DNA of 48,794 nt from Prevotella sp. (GTDB taxonomy: Bacteria > Bacteroidota > Bacteroidia > Bacteroidales > Bacteroidaceae), in assembly GCA_017483805.1 (NCBI GenBank), contig JAFUUL010000157.1, positions 1 through 48,794 on the forward strand, in the 5' to 3' direction. A program made the translations under genes and the position numbers. A model generated the notes under the pieces. That model did not search any database. It was not told the DNA's origin and saw only the letters and a list, made by a program, of their open reading frames with translations. The first letter of the stretch is position 1; each line of letters starts with the position of its first letter. Below, piece after piece: positions 27,726 to 46,042 of this stretch.

Positions 27726-28928
27726 ATGAAGAAACTAATGACTCTCGCGCTGCTGGCCATGATGGCAATAGGCGCACAGGCTGAGGAGAAGATAGACTCA
27801 GCCGCATCTAACAAACCAGTGTTCACTACCATCAAGGAGAACCCTATCACCAGCGTTAAGGACCAGAACCGATCCGGCACCTGCTGGGACTACTCCACCC
27901 TGTCGTTCTTTGAGGCAGAGATTCTGAAGGCCACCGGCAAGACCTACGACCTTTGCGAATCGTTTGTAGCCAACAAGACCTACATGGAGCGTGCCATCCA
28001 GGTGGTACGATACCACGGCGACTGCCAGTTTGCACAGGGTGGTTCGGCCGAGGACGTGCTGGCAACACTGAAGACCCACGGCATCTGTCCTGAAGAAGCA
28101 ATGCCCTTCCCCGGCTCGCTCTATGGTGACTCGCTGAACAACTTCAACGAGTTCTTCTCCCTGTTGGAGCCCTACGTGAACGCTGTGGCTACCAGCAAGG
28201 CCAAAAAGATTTCAAACCAGTGGAAGCCTGGTCTGCAGGGCATTCTCGATGCCTATCTGGGCCAGTGCCCTGAGAAATTCACTTACGAGGGCAAGGAGTA
28301 CACTCCGAAGACCTTCGTCCAGAGCCTGGGCATCAACCTCGACGACTATGTCAGCATCACCAGTTACACACACCATCCCTTCTACTCGACCTTCGCCGTA
28401 GAGGTGCAAGACAACTGGCGTTTCCCGCAGTCGTATAACCTGCCCATGGACGAGATGATGCAGGTCATCGACAATGCCATTGACAAGGGCTACACCATCG
28501 CATGGGGCGGTGATGTCAGCGAGGACGGCTTCACCCGTCAGGGCCTGGCCTACGCCATCGACACCAAGAAGACCGAGAGCCTGCAGGGCAGCGACATGGC
28601 CCGCTGGCTGAAGTTGACCACTGCCAAGAAGAAGAATCTGCTCGACTCGCTGGGCTGCACAGTCCCCGAGATCACCCCGACACAGGAGATGCGCCAAGAG
28701 CGCTTTGACAACTGGGAACTGACCGATGACCACGGCATGCTGATCTATGGCGTAGCCAAGGATCAGAACGGCAAGGAGTACTATATGGTAAAGAACTCGT
28801 GGGGCGAGACCGGCGACTACAAAGGCACCTGGTATATGACCAAGACCTTCATTGCCGCCAACACGATGGACTTCCTCATCAACAAGAACGCCATTCCCAA
28901 GGACATCCGCAAGAAACTGGGCATCTGA
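27726..28928 (+). CDS. Exported C1B cysteine aminopeptidase (bleomycin hydrolase/PepC-like)
   Basis: This 400-residue papain-fold peptidase has a signal peptide (MKKLMTLALLAMMAIGAQA). The triad is visible: Cys in DQNRSGTCWDYST (~57), His in DDHGMLIYGV (~337) and Asn in KNSWGETGDYKGTW (~357). The Gln of the oxyanion hole is in KDQNRSG. PepC relatives are cytosolic hexamers; this one carries a secretion signal, as in several Bacteroidales homologues. The stop overlaps the recJ start by one base (TGATG), so a peptidase and a DNA repair gene are translationally linked. Confidence 0.9.
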   Translation: MKKLMTLALLAMMAIGAQAEEKIDSAASNKPVFTTIKENPITSVKDQNRSGTCWDYSTLSFFEAEILKATGKTYDLCESFVANKTYMERAIQVVRYHGDCQFAQGGSAEDVLATLKTHGICPEEAMPFPGSLYGDSLNNFNEFFSLLEPYVNAVATSKAKKISNQWKPGLQGILDAYLGQCPEKFTYEGKEYTPKTFVQSLGINLDDYVSITSYTHHPFYSTFAVEVQDNWRFPQSYNLPMDEMMQVIDNAIDKGYTIAWGGDVSEDGFTRQGLAYAIDTKKTESLQGSDMARWLKLTTAKKKNLLDSLGCTVPEITPTQEMRQERFDNWELTDDHGMLIYGVAKDQNGKEYYMVKNSWGETGDYKGTWYMTKTFIAANTMDFLINKNAIPKDIRKKLGI

Positions 28929-30655
28929 TGAACTTCAAATGGAATTACGAACGACCTACACCAGAGCGACAGCAACAGGCTAAGGAACTGGCCGAGAAAA
29001 TCGGCATGAGTACCATCATGGCCGAACTGCTCCTGCGACGAGGCATACGCACAGAGTCGGCTGCCAAGCGGTTCTTCAGACCAATGCTCAGCGAACTGAT
29101 CGACCCATTCCTGATGAACGACATGGATGTGGCCGTAGACCGGCTGAACGATGCGATGGGACGCAAGGAACGCATCATGGTCTATGGCGACTACGATGTG
29201 GACGGATGCACGGCCGTTGCATTGGTGTACAAGTTCTTACAGCAGTTCTACTCGAATATCGAGTACTACATCCCCGACCGCTACGAAGAGGGCTACGGCA
29301 TCAGCAAGAAAGCCCTCGACTACGCTGCCGAGGCGGGGGTGAAATTGATTATTGTGCTTGACTGCGGCATCAAGGCCATCGACGAGATAGCCTATGCCAA
29401 GAGTCTGGGCATCGACTTCATTATCTGCGACCACCATGTGCCAGACGATGAACTGCCTTGCGCTGTGGCCATCCTCAATCCCAAGCGCGAGGACTCTACC
29501 TATCCTTTCAAGGACCTCTGCGGCTGTGGTGTGGGCTTCAAGTTCATGCAGGCCTTCGCCAAGAACAACGGCATACCTTTCTCGCAACTCATCCCGCTGC
29601 TCGACTTCTGTGCAGTAAGCATCGCTGCCGATATCGTGCCCGTGATGGGCGAAAATCGCATTCTGGCCTTCCACGGACTGAAGCAACTGAACCAGAACCC
29701 ATCGGTGGGCATGAAGAGCATCATCGAAATCTGCGGACTTACCGGCCGCGAGATCACGATGAGCGACATCATCTTCAAGATAGGTCCCCGCATCAATGCC
29801 AGCGGACGCGTGCAAAATGGCACCGAGACCGTTGACCTGCTGGTGGAGAAAGATTTCCAGCGCGCTCTGACTGAGGCCACGCACATCAACGAATACAACG
29901 AGCAGCGCAAAGACATTGACAAGCAGATGAGCGAGGAGGCCAATCAGATTGTAGAGCGACTGGAGAGCCAAGAGCACCAACCTGCCATCGTGCTCTACAA
30001 CGAGGGGTGGAAGAAGGGTGTCGTAGGCATCGTGGCCTCACGACTGACCGATATCTACTTCCGTCCTACGGTAGTACTCTCGTGCAACAATGGCATCGCT
30101 ACTGGATCGGCCCGCAGTGTGGCCGGCTATGACATCTATGATGCCGTTAAGTCGTGCCGAGACCTGCTTGAAAACTTCGGCGGTCACACCTATGCCGTCG
30201 GCCTGACTCTCAAAGTAGATAACATCCCTGAGTTCAAACGCCGTTTCCAGCAGTATGTCAGCGAACATATCCACATCGAACAGACCGAGGCTACCCTTGA
30301 CATTGAGGCTGATATCGATTTCAAGGACATCACGAAGAAACTGCAAAACGACTTGAAGAAACTGGCTCCCCACGGCCCTGACAACCCCAAGCCGCTATTC
30401 TGCACACGTGGTGTCTTTGACTATGGCACCAGTAAAGTTGTCGGCAAGCAACAGGAGCACATCAAACTGGAACTGGTCGACTCGAAGTCGTCGAACGTGA
30501 TGAACGGTATAGCCTTTGGACAAAGCCAATCGGCCCGCTACATCAAGTCGAAGCGCTCGTTCGATATCTGCTACACCATCGAGGAAAATATCTACAAGCG
30601 CAGCGAAGTGCAACTACAGATAGAGGACATCTGTCCTTCGGAAACCGAGGGTTGA
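28928..30655 (+). CDS. recJ: Single-stranded-DNA exonuclease RecJ
   Basis: This 575-residue 5'-3' ssDNA exonuclease acts in recombination and mismatch repair. DHH-domain motifs are VYGDYDVDGCTA (~78), LDCGI (~143) and the signature CDHHVPDDELP (~160). The RINASGRVQNG loop (~295) and the DHHA1 motif FGGHTYAVGL (~417) follow, with an OB-fold tail. The start overlaps the peptidase stop, and recQ begins two bases after its stop, so RecJ and RecQ, known partners in end resection, are made from one message. Confidence 0.95.
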   Translation: MNFKWNYERPTPERQQQAKELAEKIGMSTIMAELLLRRGIRTESAAKRFFRPMLSELIDPFLMNDMDVAVDRLNDAMGRKERIMVYGDYDVDGCTAVALVYKFLQQFYSNIEYYIPDRYEEGYGISKKALDYAAEAGVKLIIVLDCGIKAIDEIAYAKSLGIDFIICDHHVPDDELPCAVAILNPKREDSTYPFKDLCGCGVGFKFMQAFAKNNGIPFSQLIPLLDFCAVSIAADIVPVMGENRILAFHGLKQLNQNPSVGMKSIIEICGLTGREITMSDIIFKIGPRINASGRVQNGTETVDLLVEKDFQRALTEATHINEYNEQRKDIDKQMSEEANQIVERLESQEHQPAIVLYNEGWKKGVVGIVASRLTDIYFRPTVVLSCNNGIATGSARSVAGYDIYDAVKSCRDLLENFGGHTYAVGLTLKVDNIPEFKRRFQQYVSEHIHIEQTEATLDIEADIDFKDITKKLQNDLKKLAPHGPDNPKPLFCTRGVFDYGTSKVVGKQQEHIKLELVDSKSSNVMNGIAFGQSQSARYIKSKRSFDICYTIEENIYKRSEVQLQIEDICPSETEG

Positions 30656-30657
30656 GA

Positions 30658-32544
30658 ATGGATATATACTCTCAACTGCTGAAACGCTACTGGGGCTACG
30701 ATGACTTCCGAGGTATTCAGCGGGAGATTATCGAAAGCATTGGCGAAGGCCATGACACACTGGGACTGATGCCAACGGGTGGCGGCAAGAGCATCACCTT
30801 TCAGGTGCCTGCTCTGGCCAAAGTGGGTACGTGTCTCGTCATCACGCCACTCATCGCGCTGATGAAGGATCAGGTGAGCCACCTCCGCGAAAAGGGCATC
30901 CGTGCAGCAGCCATCTATTCAGGCATGTCGCGCGATGATATTTTGCAAACGCTCGAAAACGCTATCTTCGGTGGCATCAAACTTCTCTATATCTCACCTG
31001 AACGGCTTTCCTCCGACCTCTTTCAGCAGAAACTGCGCCACATGAAGGTCAGTTTCATCTGTGTCGACGAGGCTCACTGCATCAGTCAGTGGGGCTATGA
31101 CTTCCGCCCATCCTACCTTAGCATCTGCGACATACGGCGACTGAAACCTGGCATTCCCGTTCTGGCCCTGACGGCCACTGCTACTCCTGAGGTCATCGAT
31201 GACATTCAAGAGCGGCTGGGGTTCAGCGAGAAACGTGTCTTTCGCATGAGTTTCGAACGCAAGAACCTGATCTACGTGGTGCGACAGGCGGAAAACAAGG
31301 AGGCAGAACTGGTTCATATCCTTCAAAATGTCAAGGGGACGGCCATCGTCTATACCCACAGCCGACAGCGCACAAAGGAAATCTCCGAGATGCTCTCACG
31401 CCATGGACTCAGTGCCACCTACTTCCATGCAGGGCTCGACCATGTGGAGAAAGACATACGTCAACAGAACTGGCAGACAGATAAGACACGCATCATCGTG
31501 GCCACCAACGCCTTTGGAATGGGCATCGACAAGCCCGATGTCCGTCTGGTTGTCCACCACGACTGCCCAGATAGCATCGAAGCCTACTTCCAGGAGGCTG
31601 GACGTGCCGGGCGTGACGGACTCAGATCCTATGCAGTGCTGCTCTACAATCCCAGCGACCGCACCAAACTGGAGCAACGCATCACGACACAATTCCCCGA
31701 GAAGGACTATGTACGCGAAGTGTACAACCATCTGGCTTACTTCTATGAGATAGGTGTAGGTTCCGGCTATAACCGCACGTTCGAGTTCCCCATCGAACAG
31801 TTCTGCCGTACCTATAAGCATTTCCCCCTGCCCGTGGAGTCGTCGCTGAAGATTCTCCATCGGGCCGGATATATCGAATACCGCGAGGAGGAAGATACCC
31901 AGGCCCGCGTGATGTTCATACTGGAACGCGACGAACTCTACCGTCTGAAAAACAACACGCCACAGGAGGACACACTCATCGTAACCCTGCTGCGCAACTA
32001 TACTGGGCTGTTCAACGACTATCAGTATATTGACGAAGCCTTTCTGGCCCAGCAGACAGGTCTGACGCGCTCGCAGGTCTACATGACTCTGCGCGGATTA
32101 TCGCAGAAGCGCATCCTGCAGTTCATTCCGCAGAAGAAGACACCCTACGTTCGCTATATGCAACGACGGGAGGACTCAGAGCACCTGCTCATCCCCCCCT
32201 CGGCATACGAAGATCTGAAAGAAAGATTTGTCACGCGCATCCATAAAATGATAGAATACGCCACTGAAGATTACGAATGCCGCAGTCGCGTATTGCTGCG
32301 CTATTTCGGTGAAACTGATGTTGAAGATTGCGGACTATGCGATGTCTGCCTTGACCGTCGTGAGATGTCTTCTACCGATGTTCAGAAAGCAATCCTCCAA
32401 CTGCTGGGAGACCATCAGCCCCATCATGTCTCAGAGTTGCAGACCATCATGGCAGACAGCGTTATCATAGAAGAAGCACTCCGCCAATTGCTTCGCGAAG
32501 AACTTGTCATCAATGCCGATGGGATACTGAGTCTTGGAGACTAA
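30658..32544 (+). CDS. recQ: RecQ-family DNA helicase without HRDC domain
   Basis: The 628-residue superfamily 2 helicase shows motif 0 (FRGIQREII), Walker A (PTGGGKSITF, ~45), DEAH as VDEAHCISQWG (~137), motif III (LALTATATP), and motifs V and VI (VATNAFGMGIDKPDV, QEAGRAGRDG). The RQC zinc site is the four Cys of YECRSRVLLRYFG and DCGLCDVCLD (~540-565). The C-terminus is a short winged-helix-like tail, and no HRDC domain is present. It unwinds duplex DNA for RecJ. ATG at 30658 is preferred to the overlapping TTG. The 3' end overlaps the convergent LolA-like gene by four bases. Confidence 0.93.
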   Translation: MDIYSQLLKRYWGYDDFRGIQREIIESIGEGHDTLGLMPTGGGKSITFQVPALAKVGTCLVITPLIALMKDQVSHLREKGIRAAAIYSGMSRDDILQTLENAIFGGIKLLYISPERLSSDLFQQKLRHMKVSFICVDEAHCISQWGYDFRPSYLSICDIRRLKPGIPVLALTATATPEVIDDIQERLGFSEKRVFRMSFERKNLIYVVRQAENKEAELVHILQNVKGTAIVYTHSRQRTKEISEMLSRHGLSATYFHAGLDHVEKDIRQQNWQTDKTRIIVATNAFGMGIDKPDVRLVVHHDCPDSIEAYFQEAGRAGRDGLRSYAVLLYNPSDRTKLEQRITTQFPEKDYVREVYNHLAYFYEIGVGSGYNRTFEFPIEQFCRTYKHFPLPVESSLKILHRAGYIEYREEEDTQARVMFILERDELYRLKNNTPQEDTLIVTLLRNYTGLFNDYQYIDEAFLAQQTGLTRSQVYMTLRGLSQKRILQFIPQKKTPYVRYMQRREDSEHLLIPPSAYEDLKERFVTRIHKMIEYATEDYECRSRVLLRYFGETDVEDCGLCDVCLDRREMSSTDVQKAILQLLGDHQPHHVSELQTIMADSVIIEEALRQLLREELVINADGILSLGD

Positions 32545-36636: not shown

Positions 36637-36707
36637 GGGAAATTATCTCAGCGGTAGAGACATGACGGTTAATCATGAGGTCGGCGGTTCGACTCCGCCA
36701 TTTCCCA
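36637..36707 (+). tRNA. tRNA-Asn(GTT)-like gene with G33, phage-encoded
   Basis: The 71-nt cloverleaf has acceptor GGGAAAT/ATTTCCC, D-arm TCTC-AGCGGTA-GAGA, anticodon arm CATGA-CGGTTAA-TCATG and T-arm GGCGG-TTCGACT-CCGCC, all stems perfectly paired. The anticodon reads GTT (Asn). Two departures are clear: position 33, almost always U, is G, and base 26 between D and anticodon stems is missing. CCA is not encoded. It may be a decoy, a primer, a nuclease-resistant replacement or a decayed gene. Confidence 0.75.
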
Positions 36708-36713
36708 CAACAT

Positions 36714-38094: not shown

Positions 38095-39018
38095 ATGACA
38101 CCAGTACAAATCGCTTATTTCAAGCACTTCCTCTACGACTCCGGCATAGCCCGCCAGTTCATCATTGTCTATCAGAAGCATCACTTCAAGCACAATCCGG
38201 CATCTGTCGAAGAGTGGCTGCAGAAAGCCGATGCCCAGCAGGTCATCTTGAAAGGCTTCTCTTTCCAACTCAACCATGCCTATGGTTTTGACTATTGGAA
38301 AGAAGTAGACCAGAAGTGGGGAGAATATTGGAAAATACACAAAGACAATTTTTCCAACATCAACTACGTGTTCCTCAAAGGCGCGTTCGGAATTCTCCGA
38401 CAGAACTGGGATGCACCACAGTATTGGGCAAAAGAAACGAAGACGGCCACATACGCCAGAATGAATATCACGCCGCCAGAAGGATTTATCCCCGACGATG
38501 AGCGCGAAGTGTCTAAAGAGGACTTGTCTCTTGACAGAACAGAGGCCAACGAAACCGACACCAGTGTCAGTTTTCCGGATCATGCTCCACTTATTGAGTT
38601 TTTGGAAGATGATGATCCACTGGCCGACTTCGAGTTTTTCGAGGAAGCCTATCCTCAGCGCATTCAACTGCTGTCAAACGAGGCTTCCCTCAACTTCAAC
38701 AGCGGTTCCTTCAAACTCACCTTCAACATGCCCATGTCCAAGGAAATCGAAAAGTTAGGAATGGAGTATGCACGATTGGCCAAGAACAAGTCTGGCGATT
38801 GTTGCCTTATCCTCAATCGCTCGCAGGGCGTCCGTCTGAGCAAGTCCACCAGTTCTTCTAAGAAGAAGGATCGCTTCAACACCACCCTCAACTCAAAGGA
38901 CATCTGCACCAGACTGCGCACACTGCTCAACATCCGCCTGGACTACTCAGTCCTCAATATCGAGAGGCTTCCTTCTACACAAGATTACATCATCTTAAAA
39001 ATTACCAAACCAGCATGA
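38095..39018 (+). CDS. 307-aa hypothetical phage protein
   Basis: The N-terminal ~130 residues (MTPVQIAYFKHFLYDSGIA, then YGFDYWKEVDQKWGEYW) look helical. An acidic low-complexity linker (EFLEDDDPLADFEFFEE) follows, then a C-terminal domain (~210-307) with SFKLTFNMPMSKEIEKLG and CLILNRSQGVRLSKS. I do not recognise either domain. Its stop overlaps the SbcC-like start by four bases, so it may work with that ATPase. I start at the ATG at 38095 because upstream codons are Ser/Thr/Pro-rich out-of-frame sequence of the previous gene. Confidence 0.65.
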   Translation: MTPVQIAYFKHFLYDSGIARQFIIVYQKHHFKHNPASVEEWLQKADAQQVILKGFSFQLNHAYGFDYWKEVDQKWGEYWKIHKDNFSNINYVFLKGAFGILRQNWDAPQYWAKETKTATYARMNITPPEGFIPDDEREVSKEDLSLDRTEANETDTSVSFPDHAPLIEFLEDDDPLADFEFFEEAYPQRIQLLSNEASLNFNSGSFKLTFNMPMSKEIEKLGMEYARLAKNKSGDCCLILNRSQGVRLSKSTSSSKKKDRFNTTLNSKDICTRLRTLLNIRLDYSVLNIERLPSTQDYIILKITKPA

Positions 39019-41033
39019 ATATTCAAATCAAACGACTTGAACTCACCAACTTCAAGTGCTTCCGTCACAAGGAAATCTCCTTCGACTCCGACATCACCAC
39101 CATCCGAGGCCGTAACGGAGTCGGCAAGACCACCATCGCCGATGCTATCCTCTGGTGCCTCTTCGGTAAGAACTCTGCCGGTCAGTCCGACTTCGACCTC
39201 AAAACCCACGACCCTGATGGCCGCCCCATCCCCAACCTCGACCACTCCGTCGAAATGGTGCTGACTGTGCTCCACAGTTTCGCCAATGACCAAACTGTCA
39301 CCTTGAAGCGCACTCTCAAAGAGACCTGGGTGAAGCGTCGAGGCTCCGACGAGCAGGTCTTCAAGAACAACACCACCGAGTATCTGATTGATGGTGAGGT
39401 CAAGACCGCCGCCGACTACAAGAAGTTTATCTCCGAGCTGGTCAACGAGGACATCTTCCGTGCCATCACCAATCCCTCCTACTTCCCATCCCTCAAATGG
39501 CAGCAGCAGCGTGAATTTCTCACGAAGATGGTGGGCTACATCGCTCCCGAAGAGATTGCCACAACCGATGAACTGGCAGACCTCGTGAAGTCGCTCCCCG
39601 AATCCAACAAGGATGAAGGCATCGACATCATCGCCCACCGCAAGCACCTCTCCTACCAAATCAAGCAGATTAAGGATAAGCTCGACAAAATCCCCGTCCG
39701 CTTGGAAGAGCAGAACAAAGCCCTCCCCGAACGCCTTGATTGGGATGCCTTAAAGATGGAACTTGAAAAGGCTCAGAAAGAACTCAACGAGGTTGATAAA
39801 AAGATTCTTGCTATCAAGGCTGGTAATGGTGACGAGATTAAGCGTGCCGAAATCCGTCAGCAACTGTCAGAGCATAGCCGCAAACTTTCTGCCATCGAGA
39901 GCCACACCCGCCAGTTTATTGCCGTTAAGGAGAATCAGAAAAACCAAGCAGTGGCCGAGGCACAGCAAAAGTTCAACTCTCTCGTTACTACTCAGCGCGA
40001 CTTAGAATCACAGTTACAGTCATTCGATACACTTATTAAGCGAATTAAAGAGCAAACCGACATTCAGTATAGAAGAACTCGGGAAATGGTTCGTGCAGCA
40101 TGGCCAAGAACACAGGAAGAGTTTAATATTGAAGAGAATGGATTATGTAGCCTTTGTCACCAGCCGTTGCCAGCAGAAATGATGGATAAGGCTAAAGAAG
40201 AATTTAATATCAATAAGGCCAAACTAAAAGCCAAACTCACACAGCAGGCTAACGAAGCAAAACAACTACTTGTTGACGCTGAAAAAGAGGTAAAAGATTA
40301 CGAGACAAAGAAAGCCGAAGCCGAGAAAAACCTGGCAGACATCAAGGAGCAGATAAATGTCGTTTTCTCCGACAAAGCCAAACTGGAGAAGGAATCCGTT
40401 CTTTCCTATGAGCAGGAACTTGCCGAGAGTAAGGAGTATCAGGCACTCTTGCAGGACCGCGACGAACTACAGAAGAAACTCGACTCCGTAGGTATCGACG
40501 AAGAGGCCACCAAGCAACTCGCCGACCTCGAAGCCCAAAAGGTTCAGTACGCTGCTGTAATACAGCAGCAAACCACCCTCCTTGCCACCCGCACTCAGTA
40601 CGACAAGATTCTTGCCCTTATCGACGGCATCAACGAAGAGCAGAAAGACCTCGTTCGCCAACTCTCCGAACTGGAGCGCAAGGAAGACATCGCCCGCCAA
40701 TACCAAGACCGCCAGAACGCTATCCTCGAAGAGCGCATCAACGAGCACTTCTCACTCGTCAAGTGGCGCATGTTCCGTACCGTCAACAACGGTGGTGACC
40801 CCTTCGATGAACCCTTCTGCGAGTGCTACGTTGATGGTGTGGCCTACCACGACGGACTCAATCAAGCCGCCCGACTCAATGCCGGCCTCGACATCATCAA
40901 TGCCCTCTGCAAGCACTACAACGTTTTCGCTCCTATCGTAATCGACAACAGCGAGAGCAATTTGAATATCCTCACTACTGAGTCTCAACAGGTACGTCTC
41001 GAAGTGTTCGATTCAGATTTACAGATAGTATGA
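39015..41033 (+). CDS. SbcC/Rad50-like phage ATPase
   Basis: The 672-residue SMC-type protein has Walker A GRNGVGKTT (~33), two long coiled coils (~195-370 and ~390-560), a Cys hook CSLCHQPLP (~378) between them, and a C-terminal lobe with the Walker B-like APIVIDNSE (~648). Such proteins tether DNA ends and work with a nuclease. The usual Mre11/SbcD partner gene is not adjacent; the MBL-fold hydrolase at 43.9 kb or NinG could supply nuclease activity. Confidence 0.82.
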   Translation: MNIQIKRLELTNFKCFRHKEISFDSDITTIRGRNGVGKTTIADAILWCLFGKNSAGQSDFDLKTHDPDGRPIPNLDHSVEMVLTVLHSFANDQTVTLKRTLKETWVKRRGSDEQVFKNNTTEYLIDGEVKTAADYKKFISELVNEDIFRAITNPSYFPSLKWQQQREFLTKMVGYIAPEEIATTDELADLVKSLPESNKDEGIDIIAHRKHLSYQIKQIKDKLDKIPVRLEEQNKALPERLDWDALKMELEKAQKELNEVDKKILAIKAGNGDEIKRAEIRQQLSEHSRKLSAIESHTRQFIAVKENQKNQAVAEAQQKFNSLVTTQRDLESQLQSFDTLIKRIKEQTDIQYRRTREMVRAAWPRTQEEFNIEENGLCSLCHQPLPAEMMDKAKEEFNINKAKLKAKLTQQANEAKQLLVDAEKEVKDYETKKAEAEKNLADIKEQINVVFSDKAKLEKESVLSYEQELAESKEYQALLQDRDELQKKLDSVGIDEEATKQLADLEAQKVQYAAVIQQQTTLLATRTQYDKILALIDGINEEQKDLVRQLSELERKEDIARQYQDRQNAILEERINEHFSLVKWRMFRTVNNGGDPFDEPFCECYVDGVAYHDGLNQAARLNAGLDIINALCKHYNVFAPIVIDNSESNLNILTTESQQVRLEVFDSDLQIV

Positions 41034-41178: not shown

Positions 41179-41865
41179 ATGGCAGAAAATCAAAATCTCC
41201 CAAGCAATAAAAACCCTTCTGAAACATGGAAAGAGATTCCCGGCTATGAGGGTTATTACGAAGCCAGTACGGAAGGTAATATCCGAAGCATGGATAGAAC
41301 GCTTAACTGCCCTTGGGGTGAAGTCTATCCAGCTAAAGGAAAGCCGAAAGCCGCTTGTAAGGGTAAGGATGATTATCTTTTTGTCTGTTTAAGCAGGGGT
41401 CACAAGAAGAAAACCGTGGCAGTACATCGGTTGGTCGCAATGACGTTTATCCCAAACCCAGACAACAAACCTCAAATAGATCACATAGATGGCGATAAGA
41501 CCAATAATAAGGTTGAAAATCTGCGGTGGTGTACTGCAAAGGAGAATAATAATAATCCTATCACCAAAAAGAGACATCGCGAAGTTAAGTGGTCAGAAGA
41601 ACGTAACAGAAAGGTTAGCATAGGTTTAATCGGGCATCCGTGTTTAGAAGCAACGAGGAGGAAAATTTCAGAGCGAAGAAAAGCAAACGCGAGAAAAGTC
41701 AGACAATATACGCTCGATGGTGAGCTTGTGGCAGAGTGGAATAATACACACGAAGCCGCTGCCAGCCTTGGCCTTGTGCATGGGACGCTTATAAGTAAAA
41801 TTTATCGTGGACGCAGAACAAAAGGAAGTTATAAGGATTTTATTTTTAAATACGTAGAAAAATAA
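41179..41865 (+). CDS. Free-standing HNH homing endonuclease (NUMOD4-HNH-NUMOD1)
   Basis: The 228-residue protein has NUMOD4 ([20 protein letters not shown], 17-36), an HNH_3 nuclease domain ([32 protein letters not shown], ~80-118), a basic linker, and a NUMOD1-type motif ([19 protein letters not shown], ~181). It is AT-rich compared with its neighbours. It lies between the SbcC-like and RecT genes without disrupting either, so it is an intergenic selfish insertion that probably cuts element-free relatives nearby. Confidence 0.9.
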
Positions 41866-41867
41866 TT

Positions 41868-42773
41868 ATGGAACAGAACAGAACAACAGCAGTAACGCAA
41901 GTTACCAAGAAGCAGGAAGTAATCCTCGCTTTCAACAAGGTAGTCAATGGTGGCTACATTCAGAATCAACTTACTAACATCATGGGTAAGAACGCAGGTT
42001 CTTTCACATCGTCCATGATTGAACTCTTCTCACAAGACTCCGGACTCCAGGAGTGCGACCCGAAGGCGGTAGTAATGGAGGCTATGAAGGCTGCATCACT
42101 TCGCCTCCCATTGGCTCGCTCCCTCGGCAGAGCATACGTCCTGCCTTTCAAGAACAAAGGAGTGGCTACCCCTACGTTCATCATAGGGTGGCGCGGACTA
42201 TGTGACTTAGCGATAAGAACTGGTCAGTACGAAACCATTAATGCGGTTTGTGTTTACAAGGGCGAATTTAAAGGACAGGACAAACTTTCCGGCTTCATCG
42301 ACATCAGCGGTAATCGTGAGTCTAATGAGGTAGTGGGTTACCTTGGCTATTTCAAACTTGTTACAGGCTTCATAAAGATGGTTTATATGGACGTCAGTCA
42401 GATGGCGCACTACGGAAAGACCTATGCACCGACCTTAAAATTCAGTAAGATTACCGAGGACGAACTTATCAAGAAGGCGCAGGAACAGTCAGAGCACGGC
42501 CCACAGGCTGGCGCTATTGGTTGGTTTGGCGATTTCAATGCGATGGCTCTTAAAACTGTAGTCCGCAAGGTTCTCTCTTGGGGACCGATGTCTATTGAGA
42601 TGCAGCAGGCCATTGCTCAGGATGAAGACTACACTTCTGCCGAGGAAATCCGTAACGAGGATAATGCAGCCGCCAAGCCCGTCGTCAACGCCTCTCAGAT
42701 GATACAGGATGCCGAAGCCACCGAGGTCACCGAACAACAAAAATCGGCACCAGCCGAGCAACCGCCCATCTAA
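41868..42773 (+). CDS. recT: RecT single-strand annealing protein
   Basis: This 301-residue RecT-family recombinase includes LTNIMGKNAGSFTSSMIELF, LRLPLARSLGRAYVLPF, TFIIGWRGLCDLAIRTGQY and YMDVSQMAHYG, with a low-complexity, acidic C-terminal tail. It anneals complementary ssDNA in phage recombination and replication. No classical RecE exonuclease neighbours it. Confidence 0.93.
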   Translation: MEQNRTTAVTQVTKKQEVILAFNKVVNGGYIQNQLTNIMGKNAGSFTSSMIELFSQDSGLQECDPKAVVMEAMKAASLRLPLARSLGRAYVLPFKNKGVATPTFIIGWRGLCDLAIRTGQYETINAVCVYKGEFKGQDKLSGFIDISGNRESNEVVGYLGYFKLVTGFIKMVYMDVSQMAHYGKTYAPTLKFSKITEDELIKKAQEQSEHGPQAGAIGWFGDFNAMALKTVVRKVLSWGPMSIEMQQAIAQDEDYTSAEEIRNEDNAAAKPVVNASQMIQDAEATEVTEQQKSAPAEQPPI

Positions 42774-42775
42774 TC

Positions 42776-43270
42776 ATGACTATTATAGACCGCCGAAATG
42801 ATACAAGAACAACGGCACATGCCGGGGATTACATCATTCACAGCGATGGCAGGTTGTTCAAGGTTGATGCCAACGGCTTAGAGCACTTTATTGCCGCTGC
42901 TGCTGTTACCGATGAGGCTCTAATGAAAATCAGAGAAGAAGAGGAAATGGGGAAAAAGCCATTCTATACCGGTGATGGACTTCTCGCCCAAATAAGAAAA
43001 GAAAATCCAATCGCCTTTGACGAAGCATTATTCGGTAAGTTTGTGCCTGAGTATAAGATACCAAAGTGCGAAACCTTCCGTGATGCAAATGGCAATCTAT
43101 GCAAAAGATATATCCCGGAACCGTTTGATTATCCAAAAATGTTTGCGACACCAAACATTTTAAATCCATTCCGTTCCTTCTATATTGGTTTAGACCCGGC
43201 AGCACCCGACAACACAGAAATCCGTATCATCGTCAAAAAACGTAATATTAAGTTCAATTTTAAAAATTAA
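42776..43270 (+). CDS. 164-aa hypothetical phage protein
   Basis: The N-terminal ~60 residues have a beta character (HAGDYIIHSDGRLFKVDANG); the rest is mixed with aromatic, basic patches (FDYPKMFATPNILNPFRSFYIG). No recognised domain. It follows RecT by two bases and may belong to the recombination module. Confidence 0.6.
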   Translation: MTIIDRRNDTRTTAHAGDYIIHSDGRLFKVDANGLEHFIAAAAVTDEALMKIREEEEMGKKPFYTGDGLLAQIRKENPIAFDEALFGKFVPEYKIPKCETFRDANGNLCKRYIPEPFDYPKMFATPNILNPFRSFYIGLDPAAPDNTEIRIIVKKRNIKFNFKN

Positions 43271-43277
43271 AACCGCT

Positions 43278-43580
43278 ATGAAGAGAATCATTGCAGCCCT
43301 CACGGGCAAAGTAGAGAAGCTCAAAATGGAGCGCAAACTGAATCGTGTTAAACGTTCTATCGATGCTGCACGCGACAATGCGCAGGACGAAATCGACCGT
43401 CTTGAAGAGCGCAAGGCCGCACTCGTCGAGAAGATGTCCTCTGACACCGAGGCCAACACCATCATCAACCAGCTTTCCGACCTTATAGGTCAGCAGGAAG
43501 ACCAGCAGGCCATCATCGAGCGTCTTGACAAGGTTGAGACCTACCTTAACGAAGACGTTGAGGTAGAGGACAAAGAGTAG
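43278..43580 (+). CDS. 100-aa coiled-coil phage protein
   Basis: Almost entirely heptad-like helix (VEKLKMERKLNRVKRSIDAA, then DEIDRLEERKAALVEKM) with a strongly acidic C-terminus. It probably oligomerises; function unknown. A structured intergenic RNA follows. Confidence 0.6.
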   Translation: MKRIIAALTGKVEKLKMERKLNRVKRSIDAARDNAQDEIDRLEERKAALVEKMSSDTEANTIINQLSDLIGQQEDQQAIIERLDKVETYLNEDVEVEDKE

Positions 43581-43593
43581 TTCACGTGTCCGG

Positions 43594-43650
43594 GGGAGGT
43601 GTGGCTTACGTGAAGCCCGCCTATTGCAGTAGGTGTTGCAGACACTTCCC
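43594..43650 (+). ncRNA. Three-way-junction RNA ahead of the sponge/MBL gene pair
   Basis: Stem P1 pairs GGGAGGTGT (43594-43602) with ACACTTCCC (43642-43650), nine pairs with one G-U. It encloses P2 GGCTT-acgtg-AAGCC (43603-43617) and P3 CCTA-ttgcag-TAGG (43620-43633). P2 stacks directly on P1. A weaker outer TTCACGT/ACGTGAA pairing would compete with P2. It ends 26 bases before the ATG of the next gene, where a regulatory leader would lie. No known riboswitch consensus is recognised. Confidence 0.5.
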
Positions 43651-43676
43651 TCATTTCATCTTTAATAAATAAAATT

Positions 43677-43922
43677 ATGGAAAGATTACAAGAAATCACC
43701 GAGAACAAGAGACTCCGTAAGGAACTCGACGAGAAGATTCAAGAAGTTAAGAGCTTGCCACCAAGCCGTGAGCGCAGTCTTGCTATCACAAAATTACAGG
43801 AGGCGGTCATGTGGCTGGGTATGGACTTGAAGCGACTTAACGAAGCCGACCCATACCCATCAAGCAAAGACCCTTCAACAGGTGACAAGATTGAACCAAC
43901 CGCAGACGGATTGAAGTTATGA
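43677..43922 (+). CDS. Acb2/Tad1-type cyclic-nucleotide sponge (probable anti-defence protein)
   Basis: The 81-residue protein is two helices around a loop: NKRLRKELDEKIQEVKSL then PPSRERSLAITKLQEAVMWL. The second helix matches the recurring SRE-x-SLA-x-TKL-x-EA-x-MW pattern of Acb2/Tad1-domain phage proteins, which sequester the signalling nucleotides of CBASS and Thoeris defence. It ends with a Pro/Asp-rich tail. It overlaps the MBL gene by four bases. The alternative is an unrelated phage helical protein; ligand binding is not shown here. Confidence 0.6.
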   Translation: MERLQEITENKRLRKELDEKIQEVKSLPPSRERSLAITKLQEAVMWLGMDLKRLNEADPYPSSKDPSTGDKIEPTADGLKL

Positions 43923-44656
43923 AACTAATCGTTATCGGCTCCAATTCAGCCGGCAATGCCTACGCACTCGATGCAGGGGGAGAAATCCTCCTGCTCGAAG
44001 CGGGCATTAAGATGGCAGACGTGAAGAAGGCTATCGACTATCATATTGATGAAGTCGTAGGCTGCTTTGTCAGCCATGAGCACGGCGACCATGCCAAGTA
44101 TGCAGGCGAATATGCCCGATGGGGTGTGAAGGTGTTTGGCAATTCCAATGTAGCCAAGAGCAAGAACTTCGGTTTTGCACGCTACTACACCATCACGGCA
44201 GGCAAGACAACACATCTTGGCCGTTTCTCTGTCACCCCGTTCGACGTGGCTCACGATGTTCCCTGTTTCGGCTATCTCATCCGTCACCCGGAAATGGGCA
44301 TTATGCTCTTCGCTACTGACACCTATAAAGTCCCGATGAACATCACCGGCATAGACCACTACTTGATAGAGGCCAACTACTCCGATGCCCTCTTGAAGCA
44401 GAACGTATGGAACGGCAAGATTAACAAGTCGCAGGCCGACCGCATCATGCTCTCTCACATGTCCTTCGACTACACCGCGAAGTATCTGCGTGACTGCGAC
44501 GCTCAGAAGTCAGCCAAGACCGTCACCCTCTGCCACCTCTCCGAGCGCAACTCCGACCCCGTTCAGTTCAAGTCCACCGTTGAGTCTGCCCTTGGAGTGC
44601 CCTGTTTTATAGCAAAGAAGAATTTGATAGTAGACCTTTCAAAAGAAATTATCTGA
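43919..44656 (+). CDS. MBL-fold metallo-hydrolase (YycJ-like nuclease or phosphodiesterase)
   Basis: The 245-residue protein has a metallo-beta-lactamase fold: GSNSAGNAYALDAG at the start, metal site HEHGDH (~54), further His in FDVAHDVPCFG (~112), Asp in LFATDTYKVP (~138) and a C-terminal His (TLCHLSE, ~206). The start resembles YycJ/WalJ-type exonucleases. Two roles are possible: the exonuclease partner of RecT/SbcC-like, or cleavage of cyclic nucleotides like the Apyc1 anti-Pycsar enzymes. Translational overlap with the putative sponge supports, but does not prove, the second. Confidence 0.8.
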   Translation: MKLIVIGSNSAGNAYALDAGGEILLLEAGIKMADVKKAIDYHIDEVVGCFVSHEHGDHAKYAGEYARWGVKVFGNSNVAKSKNFGFARYYTITAGKTTHLGRFSVTPFDVAHDVPCFGYLIRHPEMGIMLFATDTYKVPMNITGIDHYLIEANYSDALLKQNVWNGKINKSQADRIMLSHMSFDYTAKYLRDCDAQKSAKTVTLCHLSERNSDPVQFKSTVESALGVPCFIAKKNLIVDLSKEII

Positions 44657-44811
44657 TGGCAATATTTGAATGTACCCGACGTGCTCAGTGCCGTGACTGC
44701 CTGCATCTTACATCTGAGACTCACGGCAAAGTCTATTGGTATTATTGTGGGCTTACAAAGAAGCGAACAACGCTCAGAACCGAAGTGTGTGACAAATGGA
44801 AATTTAAGTAA
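44656..44811 (+). CDS. 51-aa Cys-rich mini-protein A
   Basis: One-base overlap with the MBL stop (TGATG). Cysteines in ECTRRAQCRDCLHL, YYCGLT and VCDKWK suggest a zinc-binding knuckle. It shares the C-x2-C ... YxCG ... CDK(W/F) plan with the next protein. Confidence 0.6.
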   Translation: MAIFECTRRAQCRDCLHLTSETHGKVYWYYCGLTKKRTTLRTEVCDKWKFK

Positions 44812-44813
44812 CT

Positions 44814-44987
44814 ATGGCGAAATCTTTTTGTAACGGCTGCATGTTTTGGAAACTCTATCGCCCCGAACCCTATGGAGGACATTATGACTGTGGCGAAAAG
44901 TTCCACTATTGTGACAAATTTGCCACCGACAGCCCCATCAAACGCAAGCGATGGTGTAACGGAAAATATAAGGAGAATAAAGTATGA
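44814..44987 (+). CDS. 57-aa Cys-rich mini-protein B
   Basis: Starts two bases after mini-protein A; cysteines in FCNGCMFW, YDCGEKFHYCDKF and WCNGKYK. The shared Cys plan suggests the pair arose by duplication. Its stop overlaps the next start (ATGA). Function unknown. Confidence 0.6.
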   Translation: MAKSFCNGCMFWKLYRPEPYGGHYDCGEKFHYCDKFATDSPIKRKRWCNGKYKENKV

Positions 44988-45604: not shown

Positions 45605-46042
45605 ATGGCACGATACAAACCAAACTCGCCGCAGGACTACCTTGCCATCCTCGACTTCATTAACAGAGCCAAAGAGAACAACAAGGAGGTGGAGCTGAAA
45701 CTTTACCACCCCAAGCGTACCGGCCAGCAGAACAAGTACCTTTATTTCTGCCTCCAGTGGTTCGCCCATGAATATAACTGCACCGTCTTTGAGGCGAAAG
45801 AAGTGATACTAAAGCGCATTGCTGCCCCTCACATCTTCGAGCGCGAAATGACCGTTGCCGGCGAATCTATCAAGTACTACCGCTCTACCGCCGACCTCGA
45901 CACCGTAGAAATGATGTCGGCCATCGCCAACTTCCGCGCCTACTCTGATATGAACCAAATCCCCATACCAGACGCCAGCGACCAGGACTCAATCCGCTAC
46001 TGCGAACGTGAAATAGAGAAGACTGCCGCTTTCGGAACATAA
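45605..46042 (+). CDS. Probable NinB-like recombination protein
   Basis: The 145-residue protein contains PKRTGQQNKYLYFCLQWFAH and YYRSTADLDTVEMMSAIANF, with a terminal CEREIE. This order (an RTxxQN start, a helical middle, and a Ser/Thr-Ala-Asp segment before a final helix) recalls lambda NinB/Orf, an SSB-interacting recombination mediator. Sequence identity is not strong enough for certainty. Confidence 0.45.
   Translation: MARYKPNSPQDYLAILDFINRAKENNKEVELKLYHPKRTGQQNKYLYFCLQWFAHEYNCTVFEAKEVILKRIAAPHIFEREMTVAGESIKYYRSTADLDTVEMMSAIANFRAYSDMNQIPIPDASDQDSIRYCEREIEKTAAFGT

What the first reader, a model, noticed from the sequence alone, without database searches (positions are those of the whole stretch)
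43594..44656. Three-way-junction RNA leading a sponge/MBL gene pair: candidate anti-defence module
A clean three-helix RNA ends 26 bases before a probable Acb2/Tad1-type sponge, which overlaps an MBL-fold hydrolase by four bases. Acb2/Tad1 sequester CBASS/Thoeris messengers, and Apyc1 is an MBL enzyme that destroys Pycsar messengers. One operon with both capture and cleavage, behind a folded leader, would be a broad anti-signalling device. The RNA could even sense the messenger, though this is speculation.
Basis: partly seen in the sequence, partly recalled or inferred. Interest (0 to 1): 0.75.

Follow-up and report, generated by a model that had tools for sequence, protein, structure and literature searches.

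The report
Conserved phage RNA switch before swappable gene
A short folded RNA found in five related phage sequences sits just ahead of a slot whose gene is different in each of them (here a protein that probably soaks up bacterial alarm signals); it looks like a genuine two-shape RNA switch, whereas the enzyme gene that follows more likely belongs to the phage's DNA-recombination kit than to an anti-alarm device.

Summary
A three-way-junction RNA (43592-43652) precedes an Acb2/Tad1-hairpin gene (43677-43922, PF24729), which overlaps an MBL-fold gene (43919-44656) by four bases. Folding energy alone is unremarkable (25 of 1949 windows do as well), but comparison supports the RNA: it recurs in four viral contigs, keeps its helices, and has a conserved 5' strand that can form a mutually exclusive 8-bp helix (40 of 40 pairs in five sequences, two compensatory changes). 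The RNA stays while the gene behind it differs in every locus seen; no sponge lies in the stretches held of the four relatives. The MBL gene frequently sits beside RecT in phage recombination cassettes (PMC8093625) and its product falls far below NCBI's cyclic-nucleotide-phosphodiesterase cut-off. A dedicated capture-plus-cleavage device is therefore unlikely. Best reading: a cis-acting RNA switch without an Rfam match, leading a cargo slot between RecT and the MBL gene; here the cargo is a probable messenger sponge. Control of the cargo by the RNA is inferred, not shown.

The parts
43581..43588 (+). conserved 5' strand UUCACGUG of the switch; can pair with 43607-43614
   Evidence: 40 of 40 pair cells over five members; U-A for A-U in L179 and C-G for U-A in L177
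43592..43602 (+). P1 5' strand
   Evidence: fold; 9-11 pairs in all five members, one A-U to U-A change in L177
43603..43617 (+). P2 hairpin GGCUU-ACGUG-AAGCC; its loop and part of its arms are shared with the alternative helix
   Evidence: 5 of 5 pairs in all five members
43618..43635 (+). P3 hairpin
   Evidence: 6-7 pairs; different sequence but still paired in L177; one mismatch each in L182 and L196
43642..43652 (+). P1 3' strand, followed by U-rich bases
   Evidence: 4, 6, 5, 6 and 6 U in the next 8 nt in window, L179, L182, L196, L177
43677..43922 (+). cargo gene: 81-aa Acb2/Tad1-hairpin protein, probable nucleotide-messenger sponge
   Evidence: PF24729 43.3 bits; family profile matches Tad1 chain 8kbb at E 3.5e-6; two-helix hairpin model
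43919..44656 (+). MBL-fold metal-dependent hydrolase (phrog_392), taken here as part of the RecT cassette
   Evidence: 215.6 bits; metal ligands invariant in 44 sequences; model pLDDT 95.9, by Foldseek E-value closest to an ELAC-like protein, YhfI and RNase Z
41868..42773 (+). RecT single-strand annealing protein
   Evidence: PF03837 104.4 bits; phrog_148
39015..41033 (+). SbcC-like protein of the same cassette
   Evidence: phrog_77 231.1 bits
42776..43270 (+). 164-aa protein of unknown function, between RecT and the RNA in the window; not found there in the relatives
   Evidence: no Pfam or PHROGs match at E 0.01 or better; no tblastn match in the stretches held of the relatives
43278..43580 (+). 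100-aa probable coiled-coil protein, likewise between RecT and the RNA
   Evidence: only matches below the curated cut-offs; no tblastn match in the stretches held of the relatives
45605..46042 (+). NinB/Orf-like recombination mediator downstream of the MBL gene
   Evidence: phrog_72 46.1 bits; also in L177, L179, L183, L196

Best explanation
The interval between RecT and the MBL gene of these phages is a cargo slot led by a conserved two-state RNA. As the RNA is made, its 5' strand (UUCACGUG) can pair with UACGUGAA, the part that later forms the loop and inner arms of P2. When the 3' strand of P1 emerges, the RNA rearranges around the GC-rich P1 stem, which is followed by U-rich sequence. The likely use is control in cis of the genes just downstream, by transcription attenuation or readthrough. 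In this phage the first such gene is an Acb2/Tad1-type sponge that probably sequesters CBASS/Thoeris nucleotide messengers; in relatives it is something else. The MBL protein is part of the SbcC-RecT-MBL-NinB recombination cassette and probably acts as its nuclease. Shown: conservation, possible alternative pairing, different cargo. Inferred: attenuation, sponge function here, nuclease role.
For: RNA in five loci (window, L179, L182, L196, L177); 92-93% identical between the window and L179/L182/L196 although RecT DNA is 62-77% identical in those pairs. P1 and P2 fully paired in all five, P3 with at most one mismatch. Alternative helix paired in 40 of 40 cells, against 7-26 of 40 when slid by 1-4 columns; in shuffles of the upstream 24 nt a helix as long arises in 5 to 27 of 1000 per sequence, and in 0 of 1000 for all five at once (the sequences are related, so this is not a probability). 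In growing-transcript folds the alternative helix holds at the earliest length in all five (0.92-0.98) and P1 replaces it at the end in all five. U-rich bases after P1: 4, 6, 5, 6, 6 of 8. The gene behind the RNA differs in each locus. L183 has RecT directly beside MBL with neither RNA nor cargo. A pattern drawn from the five alternative helices finds no sixth sequence among the loci held.
Against: Only five members, four of them close, so covariation rests on few independent changes; the 5' strand of L179 had to be placed by its complementarity. L177's RNA is less alike (68-77%) than its RecT DNA is to three of the other four (78-80%), so 'more conserved than its neighbours' does not hold for it. 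The alternative helix does not dominate throughout: at some middle lengths P2 is favoured (window 46-55 nt, L179 45-57 and from 66 nt, L177 45-48 nt), and the final fold has the junction as drawn in three of five; L196 has P1, P2 and a shifted third hairpin, L182 has P1 with another interior. Fold z-score is only -1.60 for L177. The terminator scan does not call P1 (it allows loops of 3-8 only) and the U tract is weak in the window. L182's contig ends before the MBL gene. No expression data.
Confidence: 0.5

Rival explanations
1. The RNA acts on RNA polymerase directly, like the put RNA of phage HK022: it makes polymerase resistant to termination so that the downstream half of the early operon is read through.
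For: Position inside a long run of co-directional phage early genes, and a compact conserved RNA. The start of the abstract of PMC9378689 (search listing) says put is a cis element whose RNA suppresses pausing and termination of early genes. One cargo protein (L196) carries an RNA-polymerase alpha C-terminal domain.
Against: put lies near the start of operons and has another fold (recalled, from no call); here the RNA is mid-operon. No Rfam match.
Confidence: 0.15
2. The RNA is a small phage RNA that acts in trans (on host or competitor RNA, or on a defence protein) and only happens to be encoded here.
For: In four members the RNA is 89-94% identical while RecT DNA is 61-87%, and unpaired UUGCAG is the same in those four.
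Against: L177 does not follow that pattern. No promoter-like site beyond chance in 42700-44000 (1 found, mean 1.3 in shuffles; sigma-70 consensus only, which may not fit this host). In all five it stands before a gene, 24-30 nt from its ATG in window, L179 and L182, about 6 nt in L177.
Confidence: 0.15
3. One reading: RNA, sponge and MBL form one anti-signalling device, with capture and cleavage of messengers and an RNA that may sense them.
For: The sponge family match is real. An MBL relative in a Porphyromonas phage is annotated Apyc1-like. The MBL model aligns with YhfI and, less closely, Apyc1. Apyc1 is an MBL-fold phosphodiesterase with an HxHxDH motif (PMC9117128, passages), and that motif is present.
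Against: Sponge and MBL are not linked elsewhere (0 of 80 and 1 of 80). The MBL gene sits beside RecT (46 of 79 by Pfam; recT-lactamase B2 pairing described in PMC8093625, passages). NF041851 17.6 bits against 400. TM-score 0.63 to Apyc1 against 0.73-0.75 to YhfI/ELAC.
Confidence: 0.07
4. The element matters as DNA: a conserved joint that lets phages recombine cargo in and out, with no role as RNA.
For: It lies at the cargo boundary of a RecT cassette; the RNA of L196 is 92-94% identical to those of window, L179 and L182 although its RecT DNA is only 61-64% identical to theirs.
Against: A joint needs identity, not compensatory changes; L177 keeps the pairing at 68-77% identity.
Confidence: 0.1
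5. The stretch encodes a Cys-rich microprotein (frame reading GGVAYVKPxYCSRCCRHxP).
For: The frame is open in four members.
Against: The 13 variable columns fall at codon positions 6, 4 and 3, with no third-position excess; the GTG start is missing in L182 and the frame is not kept in L177 (read by eye).
Confidence: 0.03

Closest known systems
Acb2 / Tad1 hairpin proteins (PF24729)
   Same: SRExSLAITKLQExxMWLG motif; two-helix hairpin; small phage-borne protein; 45-46 residues align with Tad1 chains at 1.2-1.7 A and 28-31% identity
   Different: Branch with its own conserved tail (NPYPSSKDPSTG..IEPTADGLKL); no beta-sheet domain as in Tad1; ligand untested
Phage RecT-'lactamase B2' recombination cassettes
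   Same: Order SbcC-like, 'recombinational DNA repair protein', metal-dependent hydrolase, NinB in Bacteroides phage Versailles and SbcC-like, RecT-like, MBL in a Porphyromonas phage; recT-lactamase B2 pairs without a recognisable exonuclease are described in Bacillales prophages (PMC8093625, passages)
   Different: Here an HNH gene, two unknown genes, the RNA and the sponge are inserted
Apyc1 and YhfI (MBL phosphodiesterases)
   Same: MBL fold with HxHxDH motif; model aligns with both
   Different: Far below the NCBIfam cut-off for cyclic-nucleotide-degrading phosphodiesterase; genomic setting is recombination
Transcription attenuators and riboswitch-type leaders
   Same: Two mutually exclusive folds just upstream of a gene, final stem followed by U-rich bases
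   Different: No Rfam family matches; ligand, if any, unknown; the terminator stem would be a branched junction
HK022 put RNA
   Same: Structured cis RNA among phage early genes (PMC9378689, start of abstract in listing)
   Different: Different architecture and position (recalled); not tested

Membership tests
Acb2/Tad1 hairpin (PF24729) | Score above Pfam's gathering cut-off | tested here: met
   43.3 bits against 27
Acb2/Tad1 hairpin (PF24729) | Antiparallel two-helix hairpin | tested here: met
Acb2/Tad1 hairpin (PF24729) | Binds CBASS/Thoeris nucleotide messengers | not testable with these tools
   needs binding assay
Apyc1 anti-Pycsar nuclease | NCBIfam NF041851 cyclic-nucleotide-degrading phosphodiesterase cut-off | tested here: not met
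   17.6 bits against 400; whether that model covers phage Apyc1 was not checked
Apyc1 anti-Pycsar nuclease | MBL fold with HxHxDH motif | tested here: met
   H53, H55, D57, H58 invariant in 44 sequences, as are H112, D134, H206; shared by many MBL enzymes, so weak. Profile to Apyc1 chains 23.7-24.6 bits, over the motif region only
Apyc1 anti-Pycsar nuclease | Hydrolyses cCMP/cUMP | not testable with these tools
   needs enzyme assay
RecT-MBL recombination cassette | MBL gene close downstream of a RecT-type annealing protein | tested here: met
   window, L177, L179, L183, L196; 46 of 79 nearest upstream genes are Pfam RecT. In the window two other genes, the RNA and the sponge lie between
Known Rfam families | Match at gathering score, or any E up to 10 | tested here: not met
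   only a tRNA in the whole window; nothing for 43270-43950
Intrinsic terminator | GC-rich simple hairpin then U run | tested here: inconclusive
   P1 is branched, so the scan (loops 3-8) cannot call it; 4-6 U in the next 8 nt
Two-state RNA switch | Two conserved, mutually exclusive helices | tested here: met
   switching and function not tested

The most novel reading that the evidence does not exclude
The RNA is a phage-encoded sensor that detects the state of infection (for example a nucleotide messenger, polymerase stalling or a recombination intermediate) and switches on a plug-in counter-defence slot; phages exchange the slot's gene (messenger sponge, possible membrane protein, polymerase-domain protein) while keeping the sensor.
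Probability: 0.08. Interest if true: 0.85.

Novelty: new variant of a known kind. Interest (0 to 1): 0.5.

Why it matters
If right, a compact RNA marks a place where this phage group loads accessory genes, at least one of them a probable anti-defence gene. Searching for the RNA would then point to unknown counter-defence genes, much as neighbouring landmark genes have been used to find anti-CRISPRs (recalled). It also warns against calling a phage MBL enzyme anti-Pycsar from its fold or from a sponge next door: this family often travels with RecT.

Tried and rejected
Energy alone as proof of the RNA: rejected, 25 of 1949 windows are as good. Rfam: no match. Blast of the RNA with 23 nt of the sponge gene against 149 genomes (own included): 126 had a match at E 1, but apart from the window itself only short ones, the best 28 nt at E 4e-5 in the A/T-rich leader and gene start. 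Blast against the phage collection at E 10: 116 records (99 Paenibacillus), none covering 80% of the query; the ten rows shown all had E 9 and the rest were not seen. Plasmids: one record, 22 nt, E 8. Exact 18-mer in IMG/VR: none. Looser pattern: 5 IMG/VR stretches, four from contigs of real members and one (L197) that the model does not score; 7 in genome contigs, the best at E 0.079. Second pattern: 3 stretches, all known. Covariance model R1: only the own genome among 299 genus and 349 family genomes (own included, overlapping draws, strict filters), 0 of 80 MBL loci and 0 of 80 sponge loci, 0 of 3 annotated phage regions. L177 was not in the model and scored E 4e-4 in 26 sources. L178, found by NinB, shows neither RecT nor MBL nor RNA in the stretch held.

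P0001 relatives in viral contigs: none. RecT in genome contigs: none. PADLOC: nothing for the sponge or MBL. Foldseek of the sponge model: no match at E 0.001, as may be expected of a bare hairpin. Apyc1 is not among the 50 entries shown by VIA, which excludes nothing, and is rank 23 in Foldseek; neither decides function. A true tertiary pseudoknot (P2 intact while its loop pairs with the 5' strand) was considered and disfavoured because no linker bases remain to span the helix (inference); a mutually exclusive helix fits better. Literature: only search 104 was aimed at such an RNA, and search 100 at put; neither listing showed it, which is no proof that no paper exists. The other searches were about the proteins.

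Full report
What is there. The window is bases 1-48794 of contig C120 of a 199-contig assembly. Its right part is a phage early region: anti-repressor, NinG, SbcC-like protein, HNH endonuclease, RecT, two unknown genes, the RNA, the sponge gene, the MBL gene, small genes, NinB, a replication-initiation-like protein.

The RNA. The full-length fold is a three-way junction at -30.3 kcal/mol. That alone would not convince: 25 of 1949 windows of 75 nt do as well on both energy and z-score. Comparison does more. A NinB search gave three loci, two with the same neighbourhood (L177, L179); a RecT search gave those two again, one more with the RNA (L182) and one without (L183); a DNA pattern gave a fifth member (L196). 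In all five, P1 has 9-11 pairs and P2 5 of 5; P3 has 6-7 pairs, with one mismatch in each of L182 and L196. L177 is diverged (68-77% identity), has a differently spelled P3 and an A-U to U-A change in P1, yet its helices pair.

A second fold. It is complementary to UACGUGAA (43607-43614), which in the full fold is the last base of the 5' arm, the loop and the first two bases of the 3' arm of P2. In the five sequences 40 of 40 pair cells are standard, against 7 to 26 of 40 when slid by one to four columns. Two changes are compensatory: L179 has U-A for A-U in the middle, which lies in the P2 loop and so is explained only by this helix, and L177 has C-G for U-A at the end. The 5' strand of L179 had to be placed by its complementarity, since the automatic alignments that included it put it two bases off; this weakens that example.

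Folding growing transcripts, the alternative helix holds at the earliest length in all five (0.92-0.98) and P1 replaces it at the end in all five. It is not a simple one-way course: at some middle lengths the P2 hairpin is favoured (window 46-55 nt, L179 45-57 nt and from 66 nt, L177 45-48 nt), after which the alternative helix returns in window, L177 and briefly L179. The final fold shows the junction as drawn in window, L179 and L177; L196 has P1, P2 and a shifted third hairpin; L182 has P1 with another interior. This is how an attenuator or riboswitch leader can be built, but switching and function are not shown.

It does not look like a coding stretch: the 13 variable columns among the four close members fall at codon positions 6, 4 and 3, with no excess at the third. 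It is not a known RNA by Rfam. It is rare in what was searched: the model finds only the own genome among 299 genus genomes and 349 family genomes (overlapping draws) and none of 160 other phage loci fetched by MBL or sponge similarity. The RNA is more alike than RecT DNA among the four close members (89-94% against 61-87%), but not for L177 against window, L179 and L182 (68-77% against 78-80%).

What stays and what changes. Behind the RNA lies the sponge in the window; a 66-aa protein with hydrophobic stretches in L179; a 119-aa protein and a 53-aa Cys-containing protein in L177; in L196 a short frame and then a 140-aa protein with an RNA-polymerase alpha C-terminal domain; in L182 a 145-aa protein, after which the contig soon ends, before any MBL gene. 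In window, L177, L179 and L196 the MBL gene follows. No sponge and neither of the window's two other inserted genes was found in the stretches held of the four relatives (16.4, 15.3, 4.5 and 13.6 kb; sponge also by profile). In L183 RecT runs straight into the MBL gene with neither RNA nor cargo. So the RNA marks the start of an insert in a recombination cassette. In the four relatives it follows recT directly; in the window two more genes lie between, so it keeps its place relative to the cargo.

The sponge. PF24729 at 43.3 bits, 3472 homologous proteins (90% clusters) at E 0.001 or better, profile match to Tad1 at E 3.5e-6; the match to a solved Acb2 homologue is at chance level (E 1.1). It occurs in 6 of 50,697 phage records, crAss-like ones among them, and in at least 165 IMG/VR stretches, in the loci examined almost always away from MBL genes (1 of 80). 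Messenger binding is likely from the family but untested.

Verdict. The proposed broad anti-signalling operon looks like a chance neighbourhood: a cargo sponge in a recombination cassette behind a conserved RNA switch. The switch is the part worth following.

Noticed in passing
L196:6922-7344: Cargo protein behind the RNA carries an RNA polymerase alpha C-terminal domain (PF03118, 49 bits), a possible phage transcription factor.
   Followed up: partly
window 36637-36708: tRNA-Asn in the phage region; L179 has a tRNA-Met at 792-866 upstream of its cassette, L177 none in the stretch held.
   Followed up: partly
window 41179-41865: NUMOD4/HNH endonuclease, possibly a homing endonuclease, between the SbcC-like gene and recT.
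   Followed up: no
window 43278-43580: 100-aa probable coiled-coil gene directly before the RNA; besides the own genome one distant relative (34% identity) among 398 genomes, none in viral contigs.
   Followed up: partly
window 44656-44987: Two small Cys-rich ORFs (51 and 57 aa) follow the MBL gene; neither matches Pfam or PHROGs.
   Followed up: no
L209 (Porphyromonas phage005b): RecT-cassette MBL gene annotated as anti-Pycsar nuclease; by gene order it may be a recombination nuclease instead.
   Followed up: partly
window 28799-32544: RecJ-like and helicase genes in the left part of the window; where the phage region begins was not settled.
   Followed up: no
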